Positions 5,321 to 40,073 of a stretch of 64,000 nt of DNA are shown here, in pieces. The notes below the pieces were generated by a model, which saw nothing but the letters and a program-made list of their open reading frames with translations, made no database searches and was not told where the DNA came from. This DNA comes from Microthyrium microscopicum. Lineage: Eukaryota; Ascomycota; Dothideomycetes; Microthyriales; Microthyriaceae. The translations under genes and the position numbers were made by a program. Numbering within the stretch: the first letter of the stretch is position 1; each line of letters starts with the position of its first letter. Location of the stretch: NCBI GenBank assembly GCA_010405405.1, contig MU004233.1, positions 492,370 through 556,369 of the forward strand, in the 5' to 3' direction.

Positions 5321-6192
5321 ATGAACTGGCTACGTATAGTCTTATCATTATTTGTCGTGGTATCAAACTGTAGGGCGCGTAGTCCTGACAGCTATTTAGC
5401 GTAGGTTCATACTCAAATCTAGAAATCGAAGTTGTCTAATGCAATCTTGCCAGGCGAAAACTTACTGCACACTCGAGCCAATCCAATACTACCTACAGCA
5501 GATGTGGACCAGATTTTGGCTCGTGTCTTTAAGGGCATTGCTGTAATGAACTTGGACAGTGTGGAACAGGAGAAGCGTATTGCGGATCCAGTTGCGAGCC
5601 TCGTTACGGTGACTGTGATCGCATTGGCAGATGTGGGCAAGAGTTTGGATCATGTCCGCAAGGAGAGTGTTGCAATGCATTTGGCTCTTGTGGGAAAGGA
5701 GAGCTGTATTGCAAATATGGCTGCCAACCTGAGTACGGCAACCGTGATAAGATGGTTGGTAGTGGCGGCTGTGGCCTAGGCTTAGGCTCCTGTCCCCTGG
5801 GCTATTGCTGTCACGTATTCAATGGCTGTGGGAAGGGAAAGGTCTACTGTGGCGCCAATTGTCTGCCCGATTATGGCAGCTGCGACAGTGCTAGCAGGTG
5901 TGGACCAAGCTACAGTTCATGTCCCGAGAGCGCTTGCTGTTCTGTCCGTGGGACATGTGGGAAAGGACACGACTATTGCGAACCATGTATTTGTTCGCCA
6001 GAATATGGGTTCTGCGACTATAGCAAAGGAAACTGCGGGCAGAACCTCTCCCCCGTAGACGACAAGGACGGATTCGACGATATTGGGTCACTCAAGCCTA
6101 CCTATTCTTATCTGAATATGCCCGCAGTCACAGAAATCCTTGAAGACGAGAAGCTTGGAAAGGAAAGCTTGTGTCCCACAGGTTTACCATAA
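5321..6192 (+). pseudogene. Secreted protein with four chitin-binding type-1 (hevein-like) modules, interrupted by a stop
   Basis: Exon 5321-5400 encodes a signal peptide (MNWLRIVLSLFVVV..). Intron 5401-5453 (GTAGGT..CCAG with TCTAAT) joins it to a cysteine-rich exon from 5454. Four ChtBD1 modules follow, each with CG..GSCP.G.CC and CG.G..YC patterns, beginning near 5508, 5612, 5767 and 5900. The family binds chitin in the wall. In module 1 the codon between C-L and G-H-C-C is TAA (5530-5532), where related modules have a sense codon; CAA to TAA is a RIP-type change. Module 2 also has R where the last Cys is expected (GNRDK). After the last module comes an acidic tail ending at 6192. Further open segments (6182-6267) suggest the 3' end is incomplete or decayed. 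A sequencing error at 5530 cannot be excluded. Confidence 0.75.
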
Positions 6193-23158: not shown

Positions 23159-25228
23159 ATGGCAACTGATACACGCAAAATTGGTATGTAGCCCTTCAGT
23201 GACGCGAGAATAAATCTAACTTTTTCTAGCCATTCTGTCAGTCTATGACAAAACTGGTTTGCTTGATCTTGCTAATGGCTTGCTCAAATCAAATGTCCGG
23301 TAAGATAGTTCTAAAATTCTGACGGCATCCTTCTTATCTTTCCAGGTTACTCGCTTCAGGAGGTACTGCGCGTATGATACGGGATGCTGGCCTTGAGGTC
23401 GAGGATGTCTCCAGCATCACCAAGGCTCCTGAGATGCTTGGTGGTCGAGTCAAAACGCTCCATCCAGCTGTTCATGTACGAGTTGAACATTTGCAGAAGT
23501 GGTCGAATTACTAATATCAAATGTAGGGAGGAATTTTGGCACGAAACATAGAGTCCGACGAGAAAGATCTTGCGGAGCAAGGCATTAGTAAAGTCGATTA
23601 TGTCGTGTGCAATCTCTATCCATTCAAAGAGACTGTTGCGAAAACCAATGTTACCATTCCAGAAGCAGTGGAGGAGATTGATATTGGTACTTGGAAATCA
23701 TGAAAATCATGCATCTTAAACTGACTTGTTCAGGTGGCGTTACACTTCTCAGAGCCGCGGCCAAAAATCACTCAAGAGTGACCATTCTCAGCGACCCAAA
23801 TGACTACCCAAGTTTCTTGAAAGAAATAGAAGGTGGACAAGTATCAGAGCAATCGCGCCAACTATATGCCTTGAAAGCATTCACTCACACAGCCGACTAC
23901 GATAGTGCGATATCAGATTATTTCCGAAAGACATGGTCAAGTGAGCAGCAAATACCCCTGAGATATGGTGCAAACCCACATCAAAAACCAGCAGCAGCAT
24001 ACGTCAAGGAAGGAAAGCTACCATTCAAGGCCCTCGCAGGACAACCTGGATACATCAATCTTCTTGACGCATTAAACGCATGGGCTTTAGTAAAGGAACT
24101 TGACGAAGCTACTGGACTTGCCGCTGCTGCTAGCTTCAAGCATGTCTCCCCAGCTGGAGCTGCAATTGGTGTTCCTCTCTCTGAATCCGAAGCCAAGGTT
24201 TATATGGTACACGACATCGCAGGCATCGACGAATCACAACTGGTATGTGTATTTCAAATATTTGGCATTCATGCTGACAGTTCCAGGCACAAGCATACGC
24301 AAGAGCTCGTGGAGCCGATCGCATGTCGAGTTTCGGTGACCTGATTGCTCTTTCACGAAAAGTTGATGTCCCCACAGCGAAGATCATCTCAAGAGAAGTT
24401 TCCGACGGTGTAGTCGCTCCCGATTATGAGCCCGAAGCATTCGAGATCCTCAAGAAAAAGAAGGGCGGCAAATACCTGGTCCTCCAATTCGATAAATCAT
24501 TCGTCCCACCAGCACAAGAGACAAGGATGGTGTACGGCGTCTATCTCCAACAAGGACGGAACGACGTACAGATCAAAGCCGACGAAACATTTTCCAATGT
24601 GTTAGTTCCCAAAGGCGCCGACAAACTCCCCGAATCAGCTCGACGAGATCTCACAGTCGCCACTATCGCTCTCAAGTACACACAGTCCAATTCAGTATGC
24701 TATGCACTAAACGGCCAAGTTATTGGTCTCGGCGCAGGCCAACAATCACGTATCCACTGCACCCGTCTAGCCGGTGACAAGGCCGATAACTGGTGGATGC
24801 GATTTCACGAGCGCACACTCGCCCTACAATTCAAGCAAGGCACCAAACGCGCCGACAAGAGGTATTTTACTCCCGCCCCATGAAATTTCTGATACTAACA
24901 GATCTCTAGCAATGCCATCGACATGCTCTGCAGCAACCAAGTTCCCGCTAGCGGCGTCGAGCGCGAAGATTTTGAAAAGAATTTTGAAGCAGTCCCCACT
25001 CTCTTCACGCCTGAGGAGCGCAGTTCGTGGCTCTCCAAGCTGAGTGATGTAGCAGTCAGCAGCGATGCATTCTTCCCGTTCAGCGATAATGTGTATCGAC
25101 TGGGTCGCAGTGGAGTCAAATATGCGGCAGCACCCACGGGCAGTGTGAATGATGGTGCGGTGTTTGAGGCGGCGGGGAAGCTGGGGATAACGTTTGTAGA
25201 GCAGCCGATTCGTTTGTTCCATCATTAA
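23159..25228 (+). CDS. ADE17: Bifunctional AICAR transformylase / IMP cyclohydrolase (ATIC; ADE16/ADE17 type), 595 aa
   Basis: Catalyses the last two steps of de novo purine synthesis, AICAR to FAICAR and FAICAR to IMP, in the cytosol. Seven exons: 23159-23183, 23230-23299, 23346-23475, 23527-23686, 23734-24242, 24287-24861 and 24910-25228; introns of 44-51 bp, all GT..AG. The cyclohydrolase half shows [29 protein letters not shown] and CNLYPF. The transformylase half shows [18 protein letters not shown] with the catalytic Lys-His, GDLIALS and [16 protein letters not shown]. It ends in [25 protein letters not shown]. Length matches the family (about 590). Yeast has two isozymes; which name fits here is open. 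Confidence 0.97.
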
Positions 25229-25816: not shown

Positions 25817-26623
25817 CTAGACATCAGTGCCAGCAGTGTCCAAGATCCCGCCAACTGGTGCAGCAAGAGTTGGCAGTCCAAGGGCTGTGACGAGGCCGGC
25901 AACATCAGGGCTCAAGTCGTTGAGAAGTTGACGTTTCTTCAAGTCAGTTCCAGCAGTGTCGAGAATTCCGCCGACTGGTGCGGCAATTGATGCTAGACCA
26001 AGAGTTGTTACGAGGCCGGCGACGTCGGGGCTGAGATCGTTGAGGAGTTGACGCTTCTTGAGGTCACTGCCGAGTGTGGTGACAACACCGCCGACACTTG
26101 GTGATAGCGTGCCGAGACCGAGACCAGCGAGCAGACCGGCAACGTCGGGGCTGAGATCGTTGAGAAGTTGGCGTTTCTTAAGGTCACTGCCGAGTGTAGT
26201 GACAACACCGCCGACGCTTGGTGATAGCGTGCCGAGTCCGAGGCTAGCAAGCAGGCCAGCAACGTCTGGGCTAAGATCATTGAGCAGCTGTCGCTTTTTT
26301 AGGTCGCTGCCGAGTGTAGTTACGACGCCGCCTACTGATGGTGATAGCGTGCCAAGTCCAAGACCTGCTAGAAGGCCGGCGACATCAGGGCTCAAGTCGT
26401 TGAGGAGTTGGCGTTTCTTGACGTCGTTGCCGAGGGTGGTTACAATGCCGCCTACGGAAGGTGATAGCGTGCCGAGTCCAAGACCTGCGAGAAGGCCTGC
26501 AACATCTGGGCTGAGGTCGGTGAGGAGTTGGCGTTTGTTGTTCTCTGGTTGAGGGTTTGCTACTGGAGCAGCGATGGCAGCTGTGGCCAATGAGGCGATT
26601 GTGATTGATTTGATGAAATGCAT
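25817..26623 (-). CDS. Kex2-processed repeat protein (KEP): secreted precursor of six 40-residue peptides, 268 aa
   Basis: Signal peptide (residues 1-19, MHFIKSITIASLATAAIAAP) and a short pro-region are followed by six repeats that each begin right after a KR: residues 32-71, 72-111, 112-151, 152-191, 192-231 and 232-268. Each starts QLLNDLSPDVAGL and the first five end in KKR, classic sites for the Golgi protease Kex2. The peptides are hydrophobic, rich in Gly, Leu, Val and Ser, with no Cys, Tyr or Trp. Repeats 1-4 share LGLGTLSPSVGG. Repeats 5 and 6 differ (LA..APVGGILDTAGTD). Relatives of this architecture include mating factors, repellent-type surface peptides and dikaritin RiPP precursors. 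Lack of Tyr and of a UstYa-type neighbour argues against a dikaritin. TATA at 26760-26767 supports expression. Confidence 0.88.
   Translation of the reverse strand: MHFIKSITIASLATAAIAAPVANPQPENNKRQLLTDLSPDVAGLLAGLGLGTLSPSVGGIVTTLGNDVKKRQLLNDLSPDVAGLLAGLGLGTLSPSVGGVVTTLGSDLKKRQLLNDLSPDVAGLLASLGLGTLSPSVGGVVTTLGSDLKKRQLLNDLSPDVAGLLAGLGLGTLSPSVGGVVTTLGSDLKKRQLLNDLSPDVAGLVTTLGLASIAAPVGGILDTAGTDLKKRQLLNDLSPDVAGLVTALGLPTLAAPVGGILDTAGTDV
25820..26530 (-). repeat. Six tandem 120-bp coding repeats
   Basis: In-frame DNA repeats of the KEP gene. Units 1-4 are close at the nucleotide level; units 5-6 form a separate diverged pair, which suggests two rounds of duplication or homogenisation within each subgroup. 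Confidence 0.9.
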
Positions 26624-26759
26624 TGTGAAGTAGGGAATATGATAGTAGATGTAAGAGGTCTTGGGGTAGAAGAGATATGGAAGATCTTATTGGAGTAGAT
26701 GATGGAGTTGGAAGTATTGGTTGTTGATGAGATTGGTATTTCGAGCAGTTTGGGTCGTC

Positions 26760-26767
26760 TTATATAC
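26760..26767 (-). promoter_or_regulatory. TATA box of the KEP gene
   Basis: TATATAAG on the minus strand, about 137 bp upstream of the ATG at 26623. Confidence 0.5.
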
Positions 26768-30510: not shown

Positions 30511-33500
30511 ATGGCATCGACATCAGAAGCATCCAAAGCGCCTCGACGGTTCATACGGCCTAGTGTATGTCATACAACACCCTCTCCCATAAAGAACTAT
30601 ATTCTCTGACCGTCGCTACAGCTTCGACAAGCTACGCTAGTTCTCCCCAAGACTGGAGAACATGTCCGTCGCGTCTTCACCCTTACTCCCAATGGCAACG
30701 ACTCGCCCAATGCCTCCTCCTCCGCTGTGCCTACCCGTCGACGCCCGCTCCTGCGGGGCAGCCCAGACTCGCTGTTAGAAATACTCTCCGTCTTGTCCGG
30801 CGGCTTTCTTGAAGCAGCAAATTCGACGACGGGACGCGGCGTCTTCAAATGCGCCATTGCGTACACACTCGGCTCGCTCTTTACATTCGTGCCTGGGTTG
30901 ACAGACCTGCTTGGCCATGGCGATGGAAAGCATATGGTGGCTACAGTTAGCGTATACTTTCACCCGGCGCGCAGTATGGGCAGCATGCTGGAAGCGACAG
31001 GTCTGGCATGCGCGGCATTCGTATATGCCGCTGTCGTGAGCTTTGCTAGCATGGCAGTCAGCTTGTTCTTCGGGCGGCAACATATGCTCACAGCAGGCCA
31101 CGTAATCGTGTTGATAATATTCTGTGGTGGTGGACTTGGCGCGGTGGGCTGGACGAAGCAGAAACTGGGCAACCCGCTTGTCAACGTTGCGTGTTCGCTG
31201 GTTAGTCTAGTGATCATCACAGTACTGACGCGCGAGGGCTCGGTACAAGCCGCGAAGTTTTCGTACGACAAGGTGGTGCAAGTGCTCAAAATGGTGTCGA
31301 TGGGCGTTTTGGCGTCGGCCCTGGTCTCGTTTTCGATCATGCCGCGTTCGGCGCGTAAAGAGCTACGTGATGATTTGGTTAAGATTACGGATTTGTTGGA
31401 GGAGATTTTGACGGCGATCACGAGGGGATTTTTGAGCGGGAGCGAGTATGATTTGGATAATGATTCATTTCGAGCTGCGCAGCGTGGATATAAGAGCACG
31501 TTTACCTCGCTAGTGAAGAATTTGCGAGAAAGCAAATTTGAGCACTATGCAGTCGGTACCGCAGATGAGCACGAGATGGAAGTCAAACTGGTTAAATGCA
31601 TTGAGCGTCTTGCGCAAAGTCTATTCGGGCTCAGAAGTGCAGCCTCTACACAATTTCAGCTACTGGAAAAGGAACAAAATGGTTATGGAGGTCTTTCAAG
31701 GGTGTCATCTGAGGGTGACATGTTCTCGAGTCCAGTGCAAACGATGAATTCAGTAAACTTCGATCGGCCGACACATCTAACTTTGGATGCGATAGTAGAG
31801 CTTCCCGAATCACCACAAAATGAGCTAGATCGAATGATGACTGCGGAATCTCGAGGCTCTGTAACAGCTACTGGTGCAGCAGAGATATTTTCCATGTTCA
31901 TCAGCCAATTGGGGCCACCCATGAAATCATTGGCATTTACATTGAAGGAAGTGCTCAACGAGTTGCCTTTTGGGCCACCACCAAAATATGACATTACCTT
32001 CGATCAGAACTTCACCCATAGCTTAGAAGATGCGCGAGATCTTTATATCACGGCAAGAAAGGAGGCCTTGGAAATGTTGTATACTCAGCGAGTATGGGCA
32101 AGGAATCGATCTCCAGAGGTTGCGGCCGATTATGAAGAAGTCGCGGCAAGTTGTGGGCATTTCAGTTCCTCCCTTGAGGATTTTGCAGAAGATACGATTC
32201 ATTATTTGGAAATATTAGACGATCTCAAGGATCTTCTTCAAGCAAAACCACGACAGCGAAGTTGGAACTGGTTAAAATTCTGGAAACGCAAGTCCCCAAA
32301 AACCGAGCATTTACGTGAGGAAGAGGAGCGTCTTCTGGGTAGTCAAAATCCAGAATCATCGACTCGCCGAGAACCAAGTCCGCATCTCATAAAACATCCC
32401 CGAGAACAAAAGATTGTCAAAAACAGAGATGAAAGCCATAGATCAGTACAAGTCTGGAAGCTCCTAGCTCCATTACGTCGGGAAGATATCAAATACGCGA
32501 TCAAAGTTGGAACTGGTGCAGTCATATACGCCATGTTCTCGTTCATACCAGCAACTAGGCCAATTTATGCTCTGTGGCGTGGCGAATGGGGACTTTTGTC
32601 ATACATGTTGGTAGCCTCCATGACGATAGGAGCGTCTAATACTACTGGCCTCCAGCGATTCATCGGTACATGCATGGGGGCCATCATAGGAGTTCTGTCA
32701 TGGATCATATCAACAGGAAATCCAGTCGCACTTGCTTTCTTCGGTTGGTTGGTATCACTGTGGTGCTTTTACATCATTCTGGGGCAAGGGAAAGGACCAA
32801 TGGGTCGCTTTATCTTACTAACATACAACCTCTCTTGCCTATATGCGTATTCGCTGTCCGCAAAAGATGACGAAGACGATGACGATGAAGGTGGTAATAC
32901 ACCAGACATCTACGAAATTGTCGGCCATCGAGTGGTTGCTGTTATCAGTGGCTGCCTCTGGGGCATCATCGTGACACGACTTATCTGGCCTATTTCTGCT
33001 CGTCGCAAGGTCAAAGATGGGACGGCCCTATTATGGCTACGAATGGGTCTAATCTGGAAGCGCGATCCACTGCAGATTTTACTCGATGGGCCAACTCGAA
33101 GTACTTACATGGACATTCGAGAATCAATTGACTTGCAGCGTTATCTCAATCGTCTAGAAGCGCTGAGGAGTAGCGCCACACACGAATTCGATCTGCGAGG
33201 ACCTTTCGCCGATGCGACATACAGTCAGATTCTAGAGCGGACTGGAAGACTACTTGGCTCGTTCCATGCAATGAGCGTGGTAATATCCAAGGACCTTAAG
33301 GCATCACCTGGCGAAGCCGAGTTACTCCAACTAACAACCGGCGAGCGCAAAGAACTCTCTGCTCGCATCAGCCATTTGTTCTCCGGTAAGTTCCTTGATT
33401 TCTCACTTACTTCTAGAAATTGACAAGTGCCAGTCCTCGCATCGTCCATGAAGCTAGAATACCCCATGAACGACACCCTCCCAAACATTGAGCATGCTCG

Positions 33501-34993: not shown

Positions 34994-35128
34994 TTCTGTA
35001 TCAACGCCGGTCTTTTCTGCCCTTATCCACCAGATCGCTGATATCATTCCTTCTTCAGCATCTGTTCGAACTTCGCCTTTAAACACACAACCCACACTCT
35101 TTCAGCAACTACAATCACTAAGCTCACC

Positions 35129-37520
35129 ATGGTTCAATTCAACGCCATTGTTCTGGCTGCGGCTATTGCAGACTCAGCATTAGCTGCTCCGGCTTTCGGT
35201 CCTTTCGGCTTGAACTTTCCTGGCCTTGCGTTCCCAGCGTTTAATCCAGCTGCAGCAAGTGGACAAAATTCACCAGCTACTGGCAATACACCGGCTACTG
35301 GCAATGTACCAGCTTCAGGCAATGCACCGGCTATTCCAAAGTTCCCCAGCTTTCCCAAATTTCCAAAGCCGGCGGGCGCGCAAGGGGCCCCGCAAGCTTC
35401 AATAGCAGCAAATCCAAATGTCCCGCTCGGAACAGCAACTCCTAACGTTGTGCCAGCGATTCCAAATGGTCCAGCTGGTGCCTCTCCGAAAAGCCCCAAG
35501 GTACCAGCTGGTGCAGCTCCAAATGCGCCTCTTAATGGCCCAGCGACTGGAGTCTCGCCTTTGAGCCCAACAGTCCCAAAGATTCCAGCGGGCGGCGCCA
35601 ATCCACGAGCTTCATCGTTTCCAAAGATTCCAGCAGGCGGCACTGCTCCCAAGATCCCAGCAGGCGGCTCTTCTCCTAAGATTCCCGCCGGTGCTGGTGT
35701 GGGTGGAGGAGCTGGTGCACCAACACCTCAAGTTTCGACGCTCCCTACTGTGCCAATTCCAGCTTCAAACCCATCGCCAGATGCTCCGCTATTCCCAAAT
35801 ATTGCGGGTGGTGCCTCGCCAAATGTTCCAGCAGTCCCGAATGTGCCCGCCGGAGGAGCATCTACCAACGGCCCAGCCACTGCTGGAGGAGCTTTGCCAA
35901 AAAGCATCATCCCTAAGGCAGGCGGAGGAGTCGGTGGAGGAGCCGGATCAGCAACAACGCCCTTTGCCATTCCCAAGCTGCCCAACTTCCCCGGATTCAA
36001 CGGCCTGAGCTTTCCATTCAAGAAGGTAGCGCAAGGCGCCCAGATGTTCACAGCTTCCGATGTTTCTGATGGAAAGTGTGCGCCAGTCACTCTCATCTTT
36101 GCCCGTGGAACTGGCGAAATTGGCAACTTGGGAACCGTTGTTGGACCACAGCTCGTTGCTGCTTTGACGAAGGTTTTGCCACTCGATTCGCTCGCAGTTC
36201 AAGGAGTCAATTACTCCGCGTCTGCGGCCACAGCGGCTGTCAACGCGTTCAATCCTAAGGGTGCGGCCGGTGCTGTCTCCATGGCGTCTTTGATCAACAA
36301 TGCTGCTGAGGCTTGTGCTGATACCAAGGTCGTTCTTGCTGGGTATACGCAAGGAGCGGATATTGTTCGTGGTGCTTTGATGAATCTGGGACAAAACAAC
36401 AGTGTTGCCGTAAGTATTTCTGCAACGACCAAATGGGGTGCTTGCTAACATCGATTAACAGGCTGCTGTGACATTTGCCGACCCATTGGCCAAGCAGAAA
36501 TTCGTCAACATTGATCCAGCAAAGACCAAAGTTAGTGGTTCTTCGGGTGCTGGAGCTATTGGCCTCGGAAGTGCAATTCATGTTTCTGGTGGTATCGCCA
36601 AGTCCATTGCAGCGGATGTTGCATTCATACTCAAAGCTGTTGGCATCACTGCCGCCAATGCAACCATTCCTGCCGCCAGCCCTGTGACGGGCGCCCCTCC
36701 AGCAGATGCTTCTCCAGCAGTTTCTGCCGTTCCTGCGGCATCTGGTCCTGGTGTTGGGGGTGGAGCCGGTGCTGGCTCTCCTGATGCTTCCTCGCCCACC
36801 GATCTTCCACCCGCAGATGCGTCTCCCATAGCTCCATCTCCAGCAGCTCCAACCGGATCTGGTGAAGGTGCTGGTGCTGGCTCTCCAGATACCGTGCCCG
36901 CCAACGCACCACCCGCTGGTGATGGCTCTTCGGACCCTACCGATCCATCTACTCCAGACGCTGGTAGCGGCCTTGGAGGCGGCCTTGCATCTCCTGCCAC
37001 TGGCGACCCAGCCGGCGGCCTCTTCCCTACAGGTTCTACCCCAGGTTTGGTACCAAGTCTTCCACCTCTGCCACCACTGCCAGGTCTCAACCAAAGCTTG
37101 CCATCAATCCCCGGCCTACCAACTGGTAACAGCCCTCAGCTCTCAGGTCTTTTGGGGTTCTTGTCATCTCTTGGACTCAAGAAGTCTGCCAAGTATCGCC
37201 GCTCAATCACTCGAGCTGGCTCAAGTCATCCATTGATTCCAAACATTACCCCAAGTGCCGGAGCAAAGAGCCCAATTGCCAGTGTCCCAATCGACGGAGG
37301 CGCTACAATTCAAGGAAGTGCTCCGCCAGCTTCCGCACCAGGATTGGTGCCAAGTATTCCTCAATCTCCTGCTGTGCCAGGCTTGAACCTTACACTCCCC
37401 ACCATTCCCGGCCTTCCCACCGGCCACGCTCCCGAGATCTCTGCGGCCGGTCTTCTTAGCTTTTTGCAATCATTGGGAGTCAAGAAGTCACCAAAATATC
37501 GTGCCCCAAGCCGATCTTAA
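35129..37520 (+). CDS. Secreted Pro/Ala/Gly-rich protein with a catalytically degenerate cutinase-like domain, 779 aa
   Basis: Exons 35129-36409 and 36462-37520, intron 52 bp. A signal peptide (MVQFNAIVLAAAIADSALA) opens the protein. Residues about 20-300 are low complexity (PATGN, KIPAGG, PNVPA repeats). A cutinase fold follows: CAPVTLIFARGTGE (from C314) and a second Cys in EACADTKVV. The nucleophile motif GYSQG reads G405-Y-T-Q-G with Thr for the catalytic Ser. The catalytic Asp region (usually C.SGD.VC) reads VSGSSGAGAI, so Asp and the second Cys pair are missing; a His remains (AIHVSGG). The C-terminal 250 residues are again Pro-rich and hold a duplicated segment (PGLPTG..LKKSAKYRR and PGLPTG..VKKSPKYRA). 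I infer a structural or binding role in the wall instead of ester hydrolysis. Confidence 0.85.
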
Positions 37521-37827: not shown

Positions 37828-38685
37828 ATGGCGACCTTATTTTCTCGAACAGCTGCGCGCTTTGCCGCGCAGGCCGTACGGCCAAAATCCACACCAATAC
37901 GCCCCGCGCAATTGTCACAATTTGCTCGTCTAAGCAGCACGCAAGCCGAGCAACCAAGATTGCGCATAGGGTCACTCGGTAAGTGATAACAGCTTCCAAA
38001 AGCTCCAAGTAGACCCGAAAACATTCCAATGGCCATGCCAAACCAATTAATGAGCTAACGAAAGCTCCAAACAGCACCGAACTTCCAAGCCCAAACCACC
38101 CACGGCGACATCGACTTCCACACCTACATATCCGACTCGTGGGCCATCCTCTTCTCCCACCCCGCCGACTTCACACCCGTCTGCACAACCGAGCTCGGCG
38201 CCTTCTCCCGCCTAAAACCCGAATTCGACACCCGAGGCGTCAAACTCCTCGCCCTCTCCGCCGACCCGCTCACATCCCACGAAAAATGGATCGCTGACAT
38301 CAACGAGACGCAAGACACTTCCATGAGCTTCCCGATAATCGCTGACCCAGAGCGCAAAGTCGCTTGGCTATACGATATGTTGACGGAAGAAGATGCGCTG
38401 AAAAAAGACATTGCGTTTACGATACGGGCGGTCTTTGTGATTGATCCGAGTAAGAAGATACGCTTAACGATGTTATATCCAGCGAGTACGGGGCGGAATA
38501 CGGCGGAGGTGTTGCGGGTGGTGGATAGTTTGCAGCTGGGTGATAAGAAGGGGGTTGCGACGCCGGTGGATTGGGTGGAGGGTGGGGATGTTATTGTGCC
38601 GCCGAGTGTGACGACGGCGGATGCGAGGAAGAAGTTTGGGGACGTTAGGGAGGTTAAGCCCTATTTGAGATATACGAGGGTGTAG
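37828..38685 (+). CDS. PRX1: Mitochondrial 1-Cys peroxiredoxin (Prx6/PRX1 type), 253 aa
   Basis: Thiol peroxidase that reduces peroxides, in yeast imported into mitochondria. Exons 37828-37978 and 38075-38685 with a 96-bp intron, longest in the window (LRIGSL-APNFQAQTTHG). The first 45 residues are basic and hydroxylated (TLFSRTAARFAAQAV..), a typical matrix-targeting peptide. The peroxidatic Cys is C87 in HPADFTPVCTTELG. A second motif, LYPASTGRN, and the long C-terminal extension (VDWVEGGDVIVPPSV) mark the 1-Cys Prx6 class. Length is right for the family. Codon use changes within exon 2, from mostly C-ending to mostly G/T-ending after about 38400. Confidence 0.95.
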
Positions 38686-39365
38686 AATTAAAACAGCGTA
38701 GGTGCGCTGCGGTGGCTCAGGGACGAGATAGTATCATAGTAATGTATTTGTGAGCTCGAAGTCGTCTAAAATGGACCCGCTCCTTTATATTAGAGGAGAC
38801 AGTTGTAAATAAAACACCAGCTTCCACATATTTTGATCTATAAGGTTCATAATGACGCAGAAAATACACTACTAGTAAGATAAGAGATGGCGTCCCCTTT
38901 TCTGCTCATCTTCCTATTGTTACGTTGAGAAGGGGCAACCAACAGGGGCTGTTTCAGCCAAGAACAGGTGTTATTTAGATCTCTGAAGGGGCTGAGATTC
39001 TGGTTCCTTAAGCATATTTTAACCAATACAAATACCATCAAGATCCTCTAATGCTGCTCTACATACATCAACGTTTTATTCAATAAGTTTCCTATCTTCC
39101 AGCGTGGGGTAGATGCTATATCAATTTACAAGAATACATGTAGAGAATATTCGACAAAAACTTGTTTTCTAGAAAACGGTCTTCATGGAACATCAACTTG
39201 CAGACGGTACTCAAGATGCGCTAAATCTTATATAACGTCGAACCTCGGACTGCCATATCAGCCGATATGACTCACAGATAAGCAAGCTACTCTAGAAAAG
39301 ATTTCAAAACCTTCAATAACTATCAACATTCTACAAATTCATTGCACGCTCTAAAATATTGAAAC
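38686..39365. other. Intergenic
   Basis: Between two plus-strand genes. Short frames only; no motif, TATA box or repeat noted. Confidence 0.5.
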
Positions 39366-40073
39366 ATGTCACAGAGCACTCCACTCTTGGGTGCAATAGT
39401 CTCCAATACTGAGCCTTCACAACCCCCAGGGCCAGAGCCGTTGATAGGCAAACATGTCAGACTAGAGCTTCTAGAGGCCAAACACTACCCCGATCTCTGG
39501 GAAAGCTTTGGAACCCAAAACGATCTTTGGACATATTGGCTTGACGAGCCGCCCAGCTCGCTCGCTGAATTCAAGACCTACTTTGAGAATTTCTCAACCA
39601 CGGCTGGCATGCCGGATCTCTACGGCTACGCCGTTATCCCTTTATCCGGTCCCCACAAAGGCAAAGCACTCGGTATAGGCTGGGCACTCGTTGAAAATCG
39701 CAAGAATCAAGTCGGCGAATTAGGCGCCTTCTTTGGACCCAAGTTATCCAGAACGCGAGCAGGCACGGAAGCGATCTATCTACTCGTGGATCTCATGTTT
39801 AGAAAGAATCATCGACGACTACAGTGGAAGACAAATGTGCTGAATGTGGCTTCTAGGAGGGCGGCGGAACGGTATGGGTTTGTGTTTGAGGGGACTTGGA
39901 GACAGCATATGATCAATAAGGGGAGGAGTAGGGATAGTTGTTGGTATTCGATTATTGATTCGGAATGGCCGGTTTGTAAGGAAGCGTTTGAGACGTGGTT
40001 GGACGATGGGAATTTTGATGAAGAAGGACAGCAGAAGAGGAAGATTGAAGAGATTAGGGACAGTCTGAAGTAG
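39366..40073 (+). CDS. GNAT-family N-acetyltransferase (RimJ/RimL-like), 235 aa
   Basis: Single-exon acetyl-CoA-dependent acetyltransferase of the RimJ/RimL-like type common in fungi and bacteria; substrate unknown. The N-terminus has IGKHVRLELLEAKHYPDLW. The acetyl-CoA binding region follows VGELGAFFGPKLSRTRAGTEAI, where the usual Q/RxxGxG/A reads SRTRAGTEA. LNVASRRAAERYGFVFEGTWRQHM is the conserved C-terminal motif (N.aS.raaerlGF.fEG). The C-tail is charged. The ATG at 39366 is the first of the frame. No break seen. Confidence 0.92.
   Translation: MSQSTPLLGAIVSNTEPSQPPGPEPLIGKHVRLELLEAKHYPDLWESFGTQNDLWTYWLDEPPSSLAEFKTYFENFSTTAGMPDLYGYAVIPLSGPHKGKALGIGWALVENRKNQVGELGAFFGPKLSRTRAGTEAIYLLVDLMFRKNHRRLQWKTNVLNVASRRAAERYGFVFEGTWRQHMINKGRSRDSCWYSIIDSEWPVCKEAFETWLDDGNFDEEGQQKRKIEEIRDSLK

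What the first reader, a model, noticed from the sequence alone, without database searches (positions are those of the whole stretch)
25817..26623. Kex2-processed precursor of six hydrophobic peptides in two sequence classes
Signal peptide plus six 40-residue units cut by KR sites. Peptides 1-4 are one class (LSPSVGG), 5-6 another (APVGGIL). They have no Cys, Tyr, Trp or charged core beyond two Asp-type positions, unlike mating factors or dikaritin RiPPs, and resemble repellent-type surface peptides only in being hydrophobic. Homogenised DNA within each class suggests selection or gene conversion. This is the best candidate for an undescribed secreted peptide system.
Basis: partly seen in the sequence, partly recalled or inferred. 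Interest (0 to 1): 0.75.

Follow-up and report, generated by a model that had tools for sequence, protein, structure and literature searches.

The report
Six-peptide secreted precursor, widespread mould family
A filamentous fungus carries a gene whose secreted product is probably cut into six nearly identical oily 37-residue peptides, and the same peptide module turns out to be built, four times over, into a conserved but apparently undescribed secreted protein of many Aspergillus and Penicillium moulds.

Summary
The frame is real: 268 aa, a signal-peptide-like start, a short pro-segment and six 40-aa units, five ending in KKR; the last stops exactly where KKR would begin. The host is Microthyrium microscopicum or a near relative (neighbouring protein 100% identical). 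'Homogenised DNA' is wrong: units 2 and 4 are identical proteins, yet 23 of 40 codons differ, all synonymously; 13 of 15 pairs look like random codon choice. So the repeats are old and under purifying selection. The unit is widespread: a profile of the six units scores 26.9-60.5 bits on all 123 relatives analysed (shuffled at most 6.3): two metagenome proteins with KR between units, and 121 others, the named ones Aspergillus or Penicillium plus one Canariomyces. Of these, 120 have four units; 119 have a dibasic site right behind unit 2, and 118 of those 119 end 3-4 residues behind unit 4. Kex2 would mainly give two matching ~119-aa fragments there, though 24 of 120 have a further KR before unit 3, and six free 37-mers here. 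Both KEP surveys' rules exclude two-fragment forms. Function is inferred, untested: an acidic, cysteine-free, self-assembling surface peptide, repellent-like in action.

The parts
25817..26623 (-). whole precursor gene, 268 aa, one open frame
26570..26623 (-). signal-peptide-like N terminus MHFIKSITIASLATAAIA; start context CACAATG
   Evidence: sequence; the following A19 P20 are nearly invariant in alignment A1; no signal-peptide program was run
26531..26569 (-). pro-segment APVANPQPENNKR ending in the first Kex2 site
26411..26530 (-). unit 1, class 1 (mature 37-mer 26420-26530 + KKR)
26291..26410 (-). unit 2, class 1 + KKR; protein identical to unit 4
26171..26290 (-). unit 3, class 1 + KKR
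26051..26170 (-). unit 4, class 1 + KKR
25931..26050 (-). unit 5, class 2 + KKR
25817..25930 (-). unit 6, class 2, 37 aa then stop: the C terminus equals a mature end
26759..26766 (-). TATA-like TATATAAG about 140 nt before the ATG (inferred promoter element)
   Evidence: read; no expression data

Best explanation
A secreted precursor is cut by Kex2 after each KR and trimmed by a Kex1-type carboxypeptidase to six acidic, hydrophobic, cysteine-free 37-residue peptides, whose N-terminal Gln may cyclise to pyroglutamate. The 33-residue core (LLxxLSPxVxxLxxGLGLxxxxxxVGxxVxTxG) is a defined structural module, probably a capped helix, a Gly turn and a second helix. It acts by self-association at the cell surface or an air/water/cuticle interface, the way Ustilago repellents do, and is made in bulk by repeating the unit. 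In Aspergillus and Penicillium the same module works in pairs, mainly in two homologous ~119-aa fragments released by one conserved Kex2 site. Shown by sequence: the units, the conserved dibasic sites and matching C termini, purifying selection, homology. Inferred: cleavage in the cell, the fold, and the surface role.
For: Six units in exact register, last one ending at the mature end. Third codon position takes 105 of 131 pairwise differences in units 1-4; pair 2-4: 0 amino-acid changes and 21 of 37 mature codons changed. In the two metagenome relatives the spacers differ (KVKRR, KAKRQ, KRDVEKRQ) but all four joints seen hold a dibasic site. In four-unit proteins, 119 of 120 have a KR with 3 (105) or 4 (14) residues between unit 2 and it, and 118 of those 119 end 3 or 4 residues behind unit 4; N and C halves are 54% identical at the median. 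Control: best domain 26.9-60.5 bits in 123 of 123 relatives, at most 6.3 in 123 shuffled copies, none above 0 in 120 unrelated proteins. One P-domain convertase match in the genome. Six copies, GRAVY 0.79-0.82, no basic residue: suits bulk surface material better than a cationic toxin (inference). Fixed L, SP, LGL and G positions over 471 ungapped units point to a specific fold.
Against: No transcript, peptide or phenotype is in hand. AlphaFold gave helices but poor confidence (mean pLDDT 56.8, pTM 0.22) and failed on the Aspergillus type (37.1, where the model even mixes strands and helices), so the fold is not established. Helical hydrophobic moment is modestly above shuffles for the second half of each peptide (fraction 0.018-0.032) and not clearly for the first (0.049-0.102). 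Repellent membership was not tested by sequence. In P0002 the first unit is preceded by PNP, not KR, P0014 lacks the middle KR, and 24 of 120 four-unit proteins have another KR just before unit 3 and 7 just before unit 1, so the two-fragment picture is not uniform. No relative of solved structure: none with P0001 at E up to 1, and the A1 profile gave one chance-level hit, E 0.24, a phage fibre.
Confidence: 0.45

Rival explanations
1. The peptides are membrane-active, competition or host-directed peptides in the manner of Ece1-derived peptides: Kex2-released, helical, inserted into other cells' membranes.
For: Hydrophobic 37-mers with Gly spacing and helices in a low-confidence model; Ece1p is a 271-aa precursor with seven KR motifs giving eight peptides, one an amphipathic helical toxin (PMC12153327, passages).
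Against: All six units are near copies, whereas in Ece1p one peptide is the toxin. They are acidic with no basic residue. The core is conserved over many Aspergillus and Penicillium species without the diversification expected of an arms race (rows were chosen by similarity, which inflates this).
Confidence: 0.2
2. The protein stays in one piece or in large fragments as a structural wall protein; the KR motifs are incidental or cut inefficiently.
For: In the Aspergillus/Penicillium type 87 of 120 four-unit proteins have KR/RR only behind unit 2, so the module is kept in pairs and works without being freed singly.
Against: Dibasic sites sit in all five joints here and in all four joints seen in P0002 and P0003 although spacer letters differ; the precursor stops at the mature end.
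Confidence: 0.15
3. The peptides are diffusible signals (pheromone- or hormone-like) read by a receptor.
For: Same precursor logic as alpha-type pheromones; KEPs include pheromones (PMC6339444 abstract).
Against: 37 aa against 9-24 aa given for alpha-type pheromones (PMC6339444 section 6); no MF_alpha Pfam match at E up to 1; strong hydrophobicity; the module is also used in pairs inside ~119-aa fragments.
Confidence: 0.08
4. A RiPP precursor whose units are cyclised or otherwise modified (dikaritin type).
For: Kex2-cut repeats are the usual layout of such precursors, and 22% of KEP genes lie near DUF3328 genes (PMC7329392, passages).
Against: No Tyr in the peptides; 0 of 22 UstYa matches on this contig (the tool calls such counts lower bounds); none of the nine neighbouring frames scanned is such an enzyme.
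Confidence: 0.02

Closest known systems
KEX2-processed repeat proteins (KEPs; Le Marquer 2019 PMC6339444, Umemura 2020 PMC7329392)
   Same: Secretory start, at least 3 near-identical units between Kex2 sites; 40 aa lies within the published size range
   Different: The unit matches none of the conserved motifs listed in PMC6339444 section 10. Its Aspergillus/Penicillium relatives (mainly two ~119-aa fragments) fall outside both surveys' rules (at least 3 repeats; in Umemura also none above 100 aa)
Repellent Rep1 of Ustilago maydis
   Same: Kex2-cut into 10 small peptides of 35-53 aa (plus one of 228 aa) that are surface-active (PMC4617103, passages)
   Different: Basidiomycete; no sequence relation tested; here units are nearly uniform and acidic, and fibril formation is untested
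Ece1p / candidalysin precursor of Candida
   Same: Similar precursor length (271 aa) and number of KR sites (seven); short helical peptide (PMC12153327, passages)
   Different: In Ece1p one of eight peptides is the toxin; here all units are one sequence family, with no basic residue
HsbA (hydrophobic surface binding protein A)
   Same: A source names four relatives 'Hydrophobic surface bind...' (P0074, P0092, P0103, P0122; name cut off in the listing; the completion to HsbA is mine)
   Different: None of the four lists the HsbA Pfam family at E up to 10, though HMMER filters drop most matches above about 0.1; the name looks automatic

Membership tests
KEP | signal peptide for the secretory pathway | tested here: inconclusive
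   N terminus has the form of one and A19 P20 are nearly invariant in A1, but no predictor was available
KEP | at least 3 repeated units between KR/RR/KK sites, each 8-100 aa | tested here: met
   6 units of 40 aa, sites at 40-aa spacing
KEP | Kex2 present in the genome | tested here: met
   one P_proprotein match, E 1.4e-25, open frame of 891 aa
KEP | released peptides detected | not testable with these tools
   needs peptidomics
Repellent (Rep1 type) | sequence relation to Rep1 | not tested
   no Rep1 sequence came from any call
Repellent (Rep1 type) | Kex2-released peptides of 35-53 aa | tested here: met
   predicted 37 aa; range from PMC4617103; release itself not shown
Repellent (Rep1 type) | amphipathic | tested here: inconclusive
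   hydrophobic moment modest
[quoted passage not shown]
   bench only
Dikaritin RiPP | UstYa/DUF3328 gene nearby | tested here: not met
   22 matches in genome, none on contig C4
Alpha-type pheromone | MF_alpha Pfam motif; 9-24 aa | tested here: not met
   no such Pfam match; 37 aa
Hydrophobin | eight conserved cysteines (PMC2253510, start of abstract in search listing) | tested here: not met
   no Cys in the protein
HsbA (Pfam) | match to the Pfam family | tested here: not met
   not listed for P0001 at E up to 1, nor for P0074, P0092, P0103, P0122 at E up to 10
DUF2523 (Pfam) | a matched domain | tested here: not met
   whole-protein score 33.2 bits exceeds the cut-off 22.1, but 0 single stretches pass and none of ten relatives scanned lists it; read as a repeat artefact
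Candidalysin precursor | basic helical toxin as one of several unlike peptides | tested here: not met
   six alike units, 0 basic residues in each mature peptide; candidalysin's likeness to cationic antimicrobial peptides is from PMC12153327 passages

The most novel reading that the evidence does not exclude
A widespread ascomycete family of cysteine-free, Kex2-released peptides built on one 33-residue helix-turn-helix module forms a surface-assembly system parallel to hydrophobins and to Ustilago repellents. It is deployed as free 37-mers in Microthyrium and as paired modules in Aspergillus and Penicillium, and was overlooked because most of the latter carry only one Kex2 site.
Probability: 0.3. 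Interest if true: 0.7.

Novelty: new variant of a known kind. Interest (0 to 1): 0.52.

Why it matters
KEPs are widespread but highly diverse, most types being found in a single genus (PMC7329392, passages). Here one module is followed across three classes of Ascomycota (class of Aspergillus, Penicillium and Canariomyces recalled), with a change of precursor layout, a fixed cut site and clear purifying selection. Because relatives sit in moulds such as Penicillium rubens and P. chrysogenum, the function of a hydrophobic KEP-like peptide becomes directly testable. It also shows that survey rules (at least three repeats; in one survey none above 100 aa) hide a conserved two-fragment class.

Tried and rejected
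Homogenised DNA or recent gene conversion across a class: rejected by codon comparison and a random-codon null. A four-codon patch (GGC ACG CTA TCA) shared by units 1-4 looked like a conversion tract, but a permutation test gave P 0.11. Pfam DUF2523 (33.2 bits, above its whole-protein cut-off of 22.1, but no single stretch passing) and NCBIfam Anth_synII (15.6 and 24.6 bits against a cut-off of 320) are read as repeat artefacts: short hydrophobic words counted many times. Dikaritin, pheromone and hydrophobin were rejected as above. Prokaryotic or viral relatives: one genome-contig scan with A2 (43 pattern matches, none confirmed) and one viral-contig scan with A3 (14 matches, none confirmed) found nothing. 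Paralogues in the own genome: P0001 and P0005 found only this gene. Plant-type glutaminyl cyclase PF05096: 0 matches; the other cyclase type was not tested, so pyroglutamate is only a possibility. Fold search was not run because the models were too poor. Literature on the Aspergillus/Penicillium relatives: six locus tags in one search, 0 papers; string SGLGLP, 2 papers on other subjects by their listing; topic searches. Supplementary KEP tables could not be opened, so the gene or its relatives may be listed there.

Full report
WHAT IS THERE. Window 25817-26623, minus strand, encodes 268 aa: a signal-peptide-like start, the pro-segment APVANPQPENNKR, then six units in exact 40-aa register, five of them ending in KKR. 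The sixth unit has 37 aa and stops where KKR would begin. A TATATAAG lies about 140 nt before the ATG, and the start context is CACAATG. Among the neighbours, Pfam names an AICAR transformylase/IMP cyclohydrolase gene (frames at 23682-24883), a cutinase (35042-36448), a 1-Cys peroxiredoxin (38059-38685) and a GNAT acetyltransferase (39363-40073); four of nine frames scanned had no match. The frame at 30610-33423 belongs to a membrane-transporter-like family by its relatives (PF13515).

HOST. The window lies in a 36.9-Mb assembly of 20 contigs. A 927-aa stretch at 30640-33420 is 100% identical (99% covered) to a protein of Microthyrium microscopicum, the next best being 71%; this is a dothideomycete. 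The precursor itself was not returned by its own search, which covers proteins of about 147-469 aa, so it is probably not annotated in that genome as read here.

SELECTION. Units 2 and 4 are identical in protein but 23 of 40 codons differ. With 37 mature codons and a random-codon null from the gene's own usage (2000 draws a pair), 13 of 15 pairs are not below expectation at P 0.05 (lowest of these 0.067), and only pairs 1-2 (P 0.001) and 3-4 (0.000 as printed, of 2000) are. Summed over the six pairs of units 1-4 the differences fall 16, 10 and 105 on codon positions 1, 2 and 3. The repeats are therefore old, and each copy has been held to nearly the same peptide.

RELATIVES. A single-sequence search gave 13 proteins (only the 7998 candidates sharing most words were scored). 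A profile of those and the query (A1) gave 196 at E up to 1e-3, of which 120 were listed. I analysed the 123 relatives P0002-P0124 of the two listings; the 76 unlisted rows were not seen as such (P0002, P0003 and P0014 are not among the 120 listed). Reading the names in the two listings, every row with an organism is Aspergillus or Penicillium except Canariomyces notabilis (P0005). A profile HMM built only from the six window units hit every one of the 123 (best domain 26.9-60.5 bits); shuffled copies reached at most 6.3, and none of 120 unrelated membrane proteins scored above 0. Of the 124 proteins including the query, 120 have four units, three have three (P0002, P0003, P0100) and the query has six. 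The unit core over 471 ungapped units of 495: L1 100%, L5 100%, S6 92%, P7 96%, V9 93%, L12 97%, L16 99%, G17 97%, L18 100%, G26 100% (rounded; rows were gathered by similarity, so this is an upper estimate).

PRECURSOR LAYOUT. In 119 of the 120 four-unit proteins a KR (or KKR) follows unit 2 with 3 (105) or 4 (14) residues between (commonest KNLKR, ENLKR, TSLKR); the exception is P0014. In 118 of these 119 the protein ends 3 (111) or 4 (7) residues behind unit 4 (QNL, KNL, ANL); one has 64. The two halves are 54% identical at the median over about 119 residues. Cleavage and trimming at the middle site would give two fragments with alike C termini, the same logic as in the window, where the last unit ends at the mature end. 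The picture is not uniform: 87 of 120 have KR/RR only behind unit 2, but 24 have another KR directly before unit 3 (as in AKRLLIQLSP, the place where the window has KRQLLNDLSP), 7 just before unit 1, 1 just after unit 4 and 2 elsewhere. In the window and the two metagenome relatives the spacers differ (KKR, KVKR, KAKR, KRDVEKR, KREVEKR) but each joint holds a dibasic site; in P0002 the first unit follows PNP and not KR. P0003 looks like a partial gene model with an unspliced or misread stretch. In a tree of 56 units from 14 of the 124 proteins (the query, P0002, P0003 and 11 four-unit proteins), the 12 units of the KR-rich type form one group (support 93/98, below the tool's star; 94% of 200 bootstrap trees), but only 37 columns were available and most forks are open. 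Which layout is ancestral is not settled: the root is arbitrary.

MECHANISM. One convertase P-domain match is in the genome. No UstYa match lies on the contig. Mature peptides: 37 aa, three or four Asp, no Lys or Arg, GRAVY 0.79-0.82. AlphaFold predicted helices throughout, with block means of 74-87 in residues 231-268 but 56.8 overall; the Aspergillus type failed at 37.1. SP followed by D/E before a hydrophobic run looks like a helix N-cap (inference). I favour a self-associating surface peptide: bulk production by repetition, no positive charge of the kind used in membrane disruption, broad conservation in moulds that are mostly saprotrophs (recalled), and use of the same module in tandem within larger fragments. 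Rep1 peptides of Ustilago, 35-53 aa, form surface-active amyloid-like fibrils (PMC4617103, passages), and they are the best analogue. This step is inference only.

KNOWN OR NEW. It meets the repeat and site rules of KEPs (PMC6339444 section 24; PMC7329392 section 13). The conserved motifs listed in PMC6339444 section 10 do not include it, and text searches for LSP, GLGL and LLND in that paper and LSP and GLGL in PMC7329392 found no such unit. The supplements were not readable. The two-fragment relatives fall outside both rules. C. cinerea knock-outs of six KEPs showed no apparent phenotype (PMC9769878 section 10), a warning that a deletion here may also be silent.

PAPERS SEEN: PMC6339444 outline, sections 6, 10, 24 and passages; PMC7329392 passages and section 13; PMC9769878 outline and section 10; PMC4617103, PMC12153327, PMC5241404, PMC8329847 passages; others as search listings only.

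VERDICT. Observation largely right, DNA claim wrong, context much larger than supposed. New variant of a known kind, interest 0.52.

Noticed in passing
35042-37520 (+): Cutinase gene with a long Pro/Ala/Gly-rich stretch before the catalytic domain and, in the next frame, two similar blocks (LPxIPGLPTG...SFLxSLGxKKSxKYR); the change of frame between 36448 and 36459 suggests an intron.
   Followed up: partly
5533-6192 (+): Cysteine-rich repeats (GxCCNxxGxCGxGxxYC...) resembling chitin-binding type 1 domains (recalled; not scanned).
   Followed up: no
26052-26552 (+): The opposite strand of the repeats is open for 166 codons; the third-position bias of the minus frame points to a shadow frame.
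   Followed up: partly
window 25817-26623 versus protein databases: A neighbouring protein is found 100% identical under Microthyrium microscopicum, but this precursor is not among returned proteins (about 147-469 aa), so it may be unannotated.
   Followed up: partly
own genome, contigs C9:1831997-1834222, C8:231785-233706 and others: 22 UstYa (DUF3328) matching stretches elsewhere, some side by side, suggesting several dikaritin-type loci in this fungus.
   Followed up: no
P0074, P0092, P0103, P0122: Aspergillus relatives carry a name beginning 'Hydrophobic surface bind' although no HsbA Pfam match is listed.
   Followed up: yes
P0005, P0009, P0013, P0055, P0058 and 19 more relatives: 24 of 120 four-unit relatives have a KR directly before unit 3, at the same place as the window's KR before each QLL, perhaps a step between the two layouts.
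   Followed up: partly
26291-26530 and 26051-26290: Only neighbouring unit pairs 1-2 and 3-4 keep DNA likeness beyond random codons, as if single-unit tandem duplications were the latest events.
   Followed up: partly
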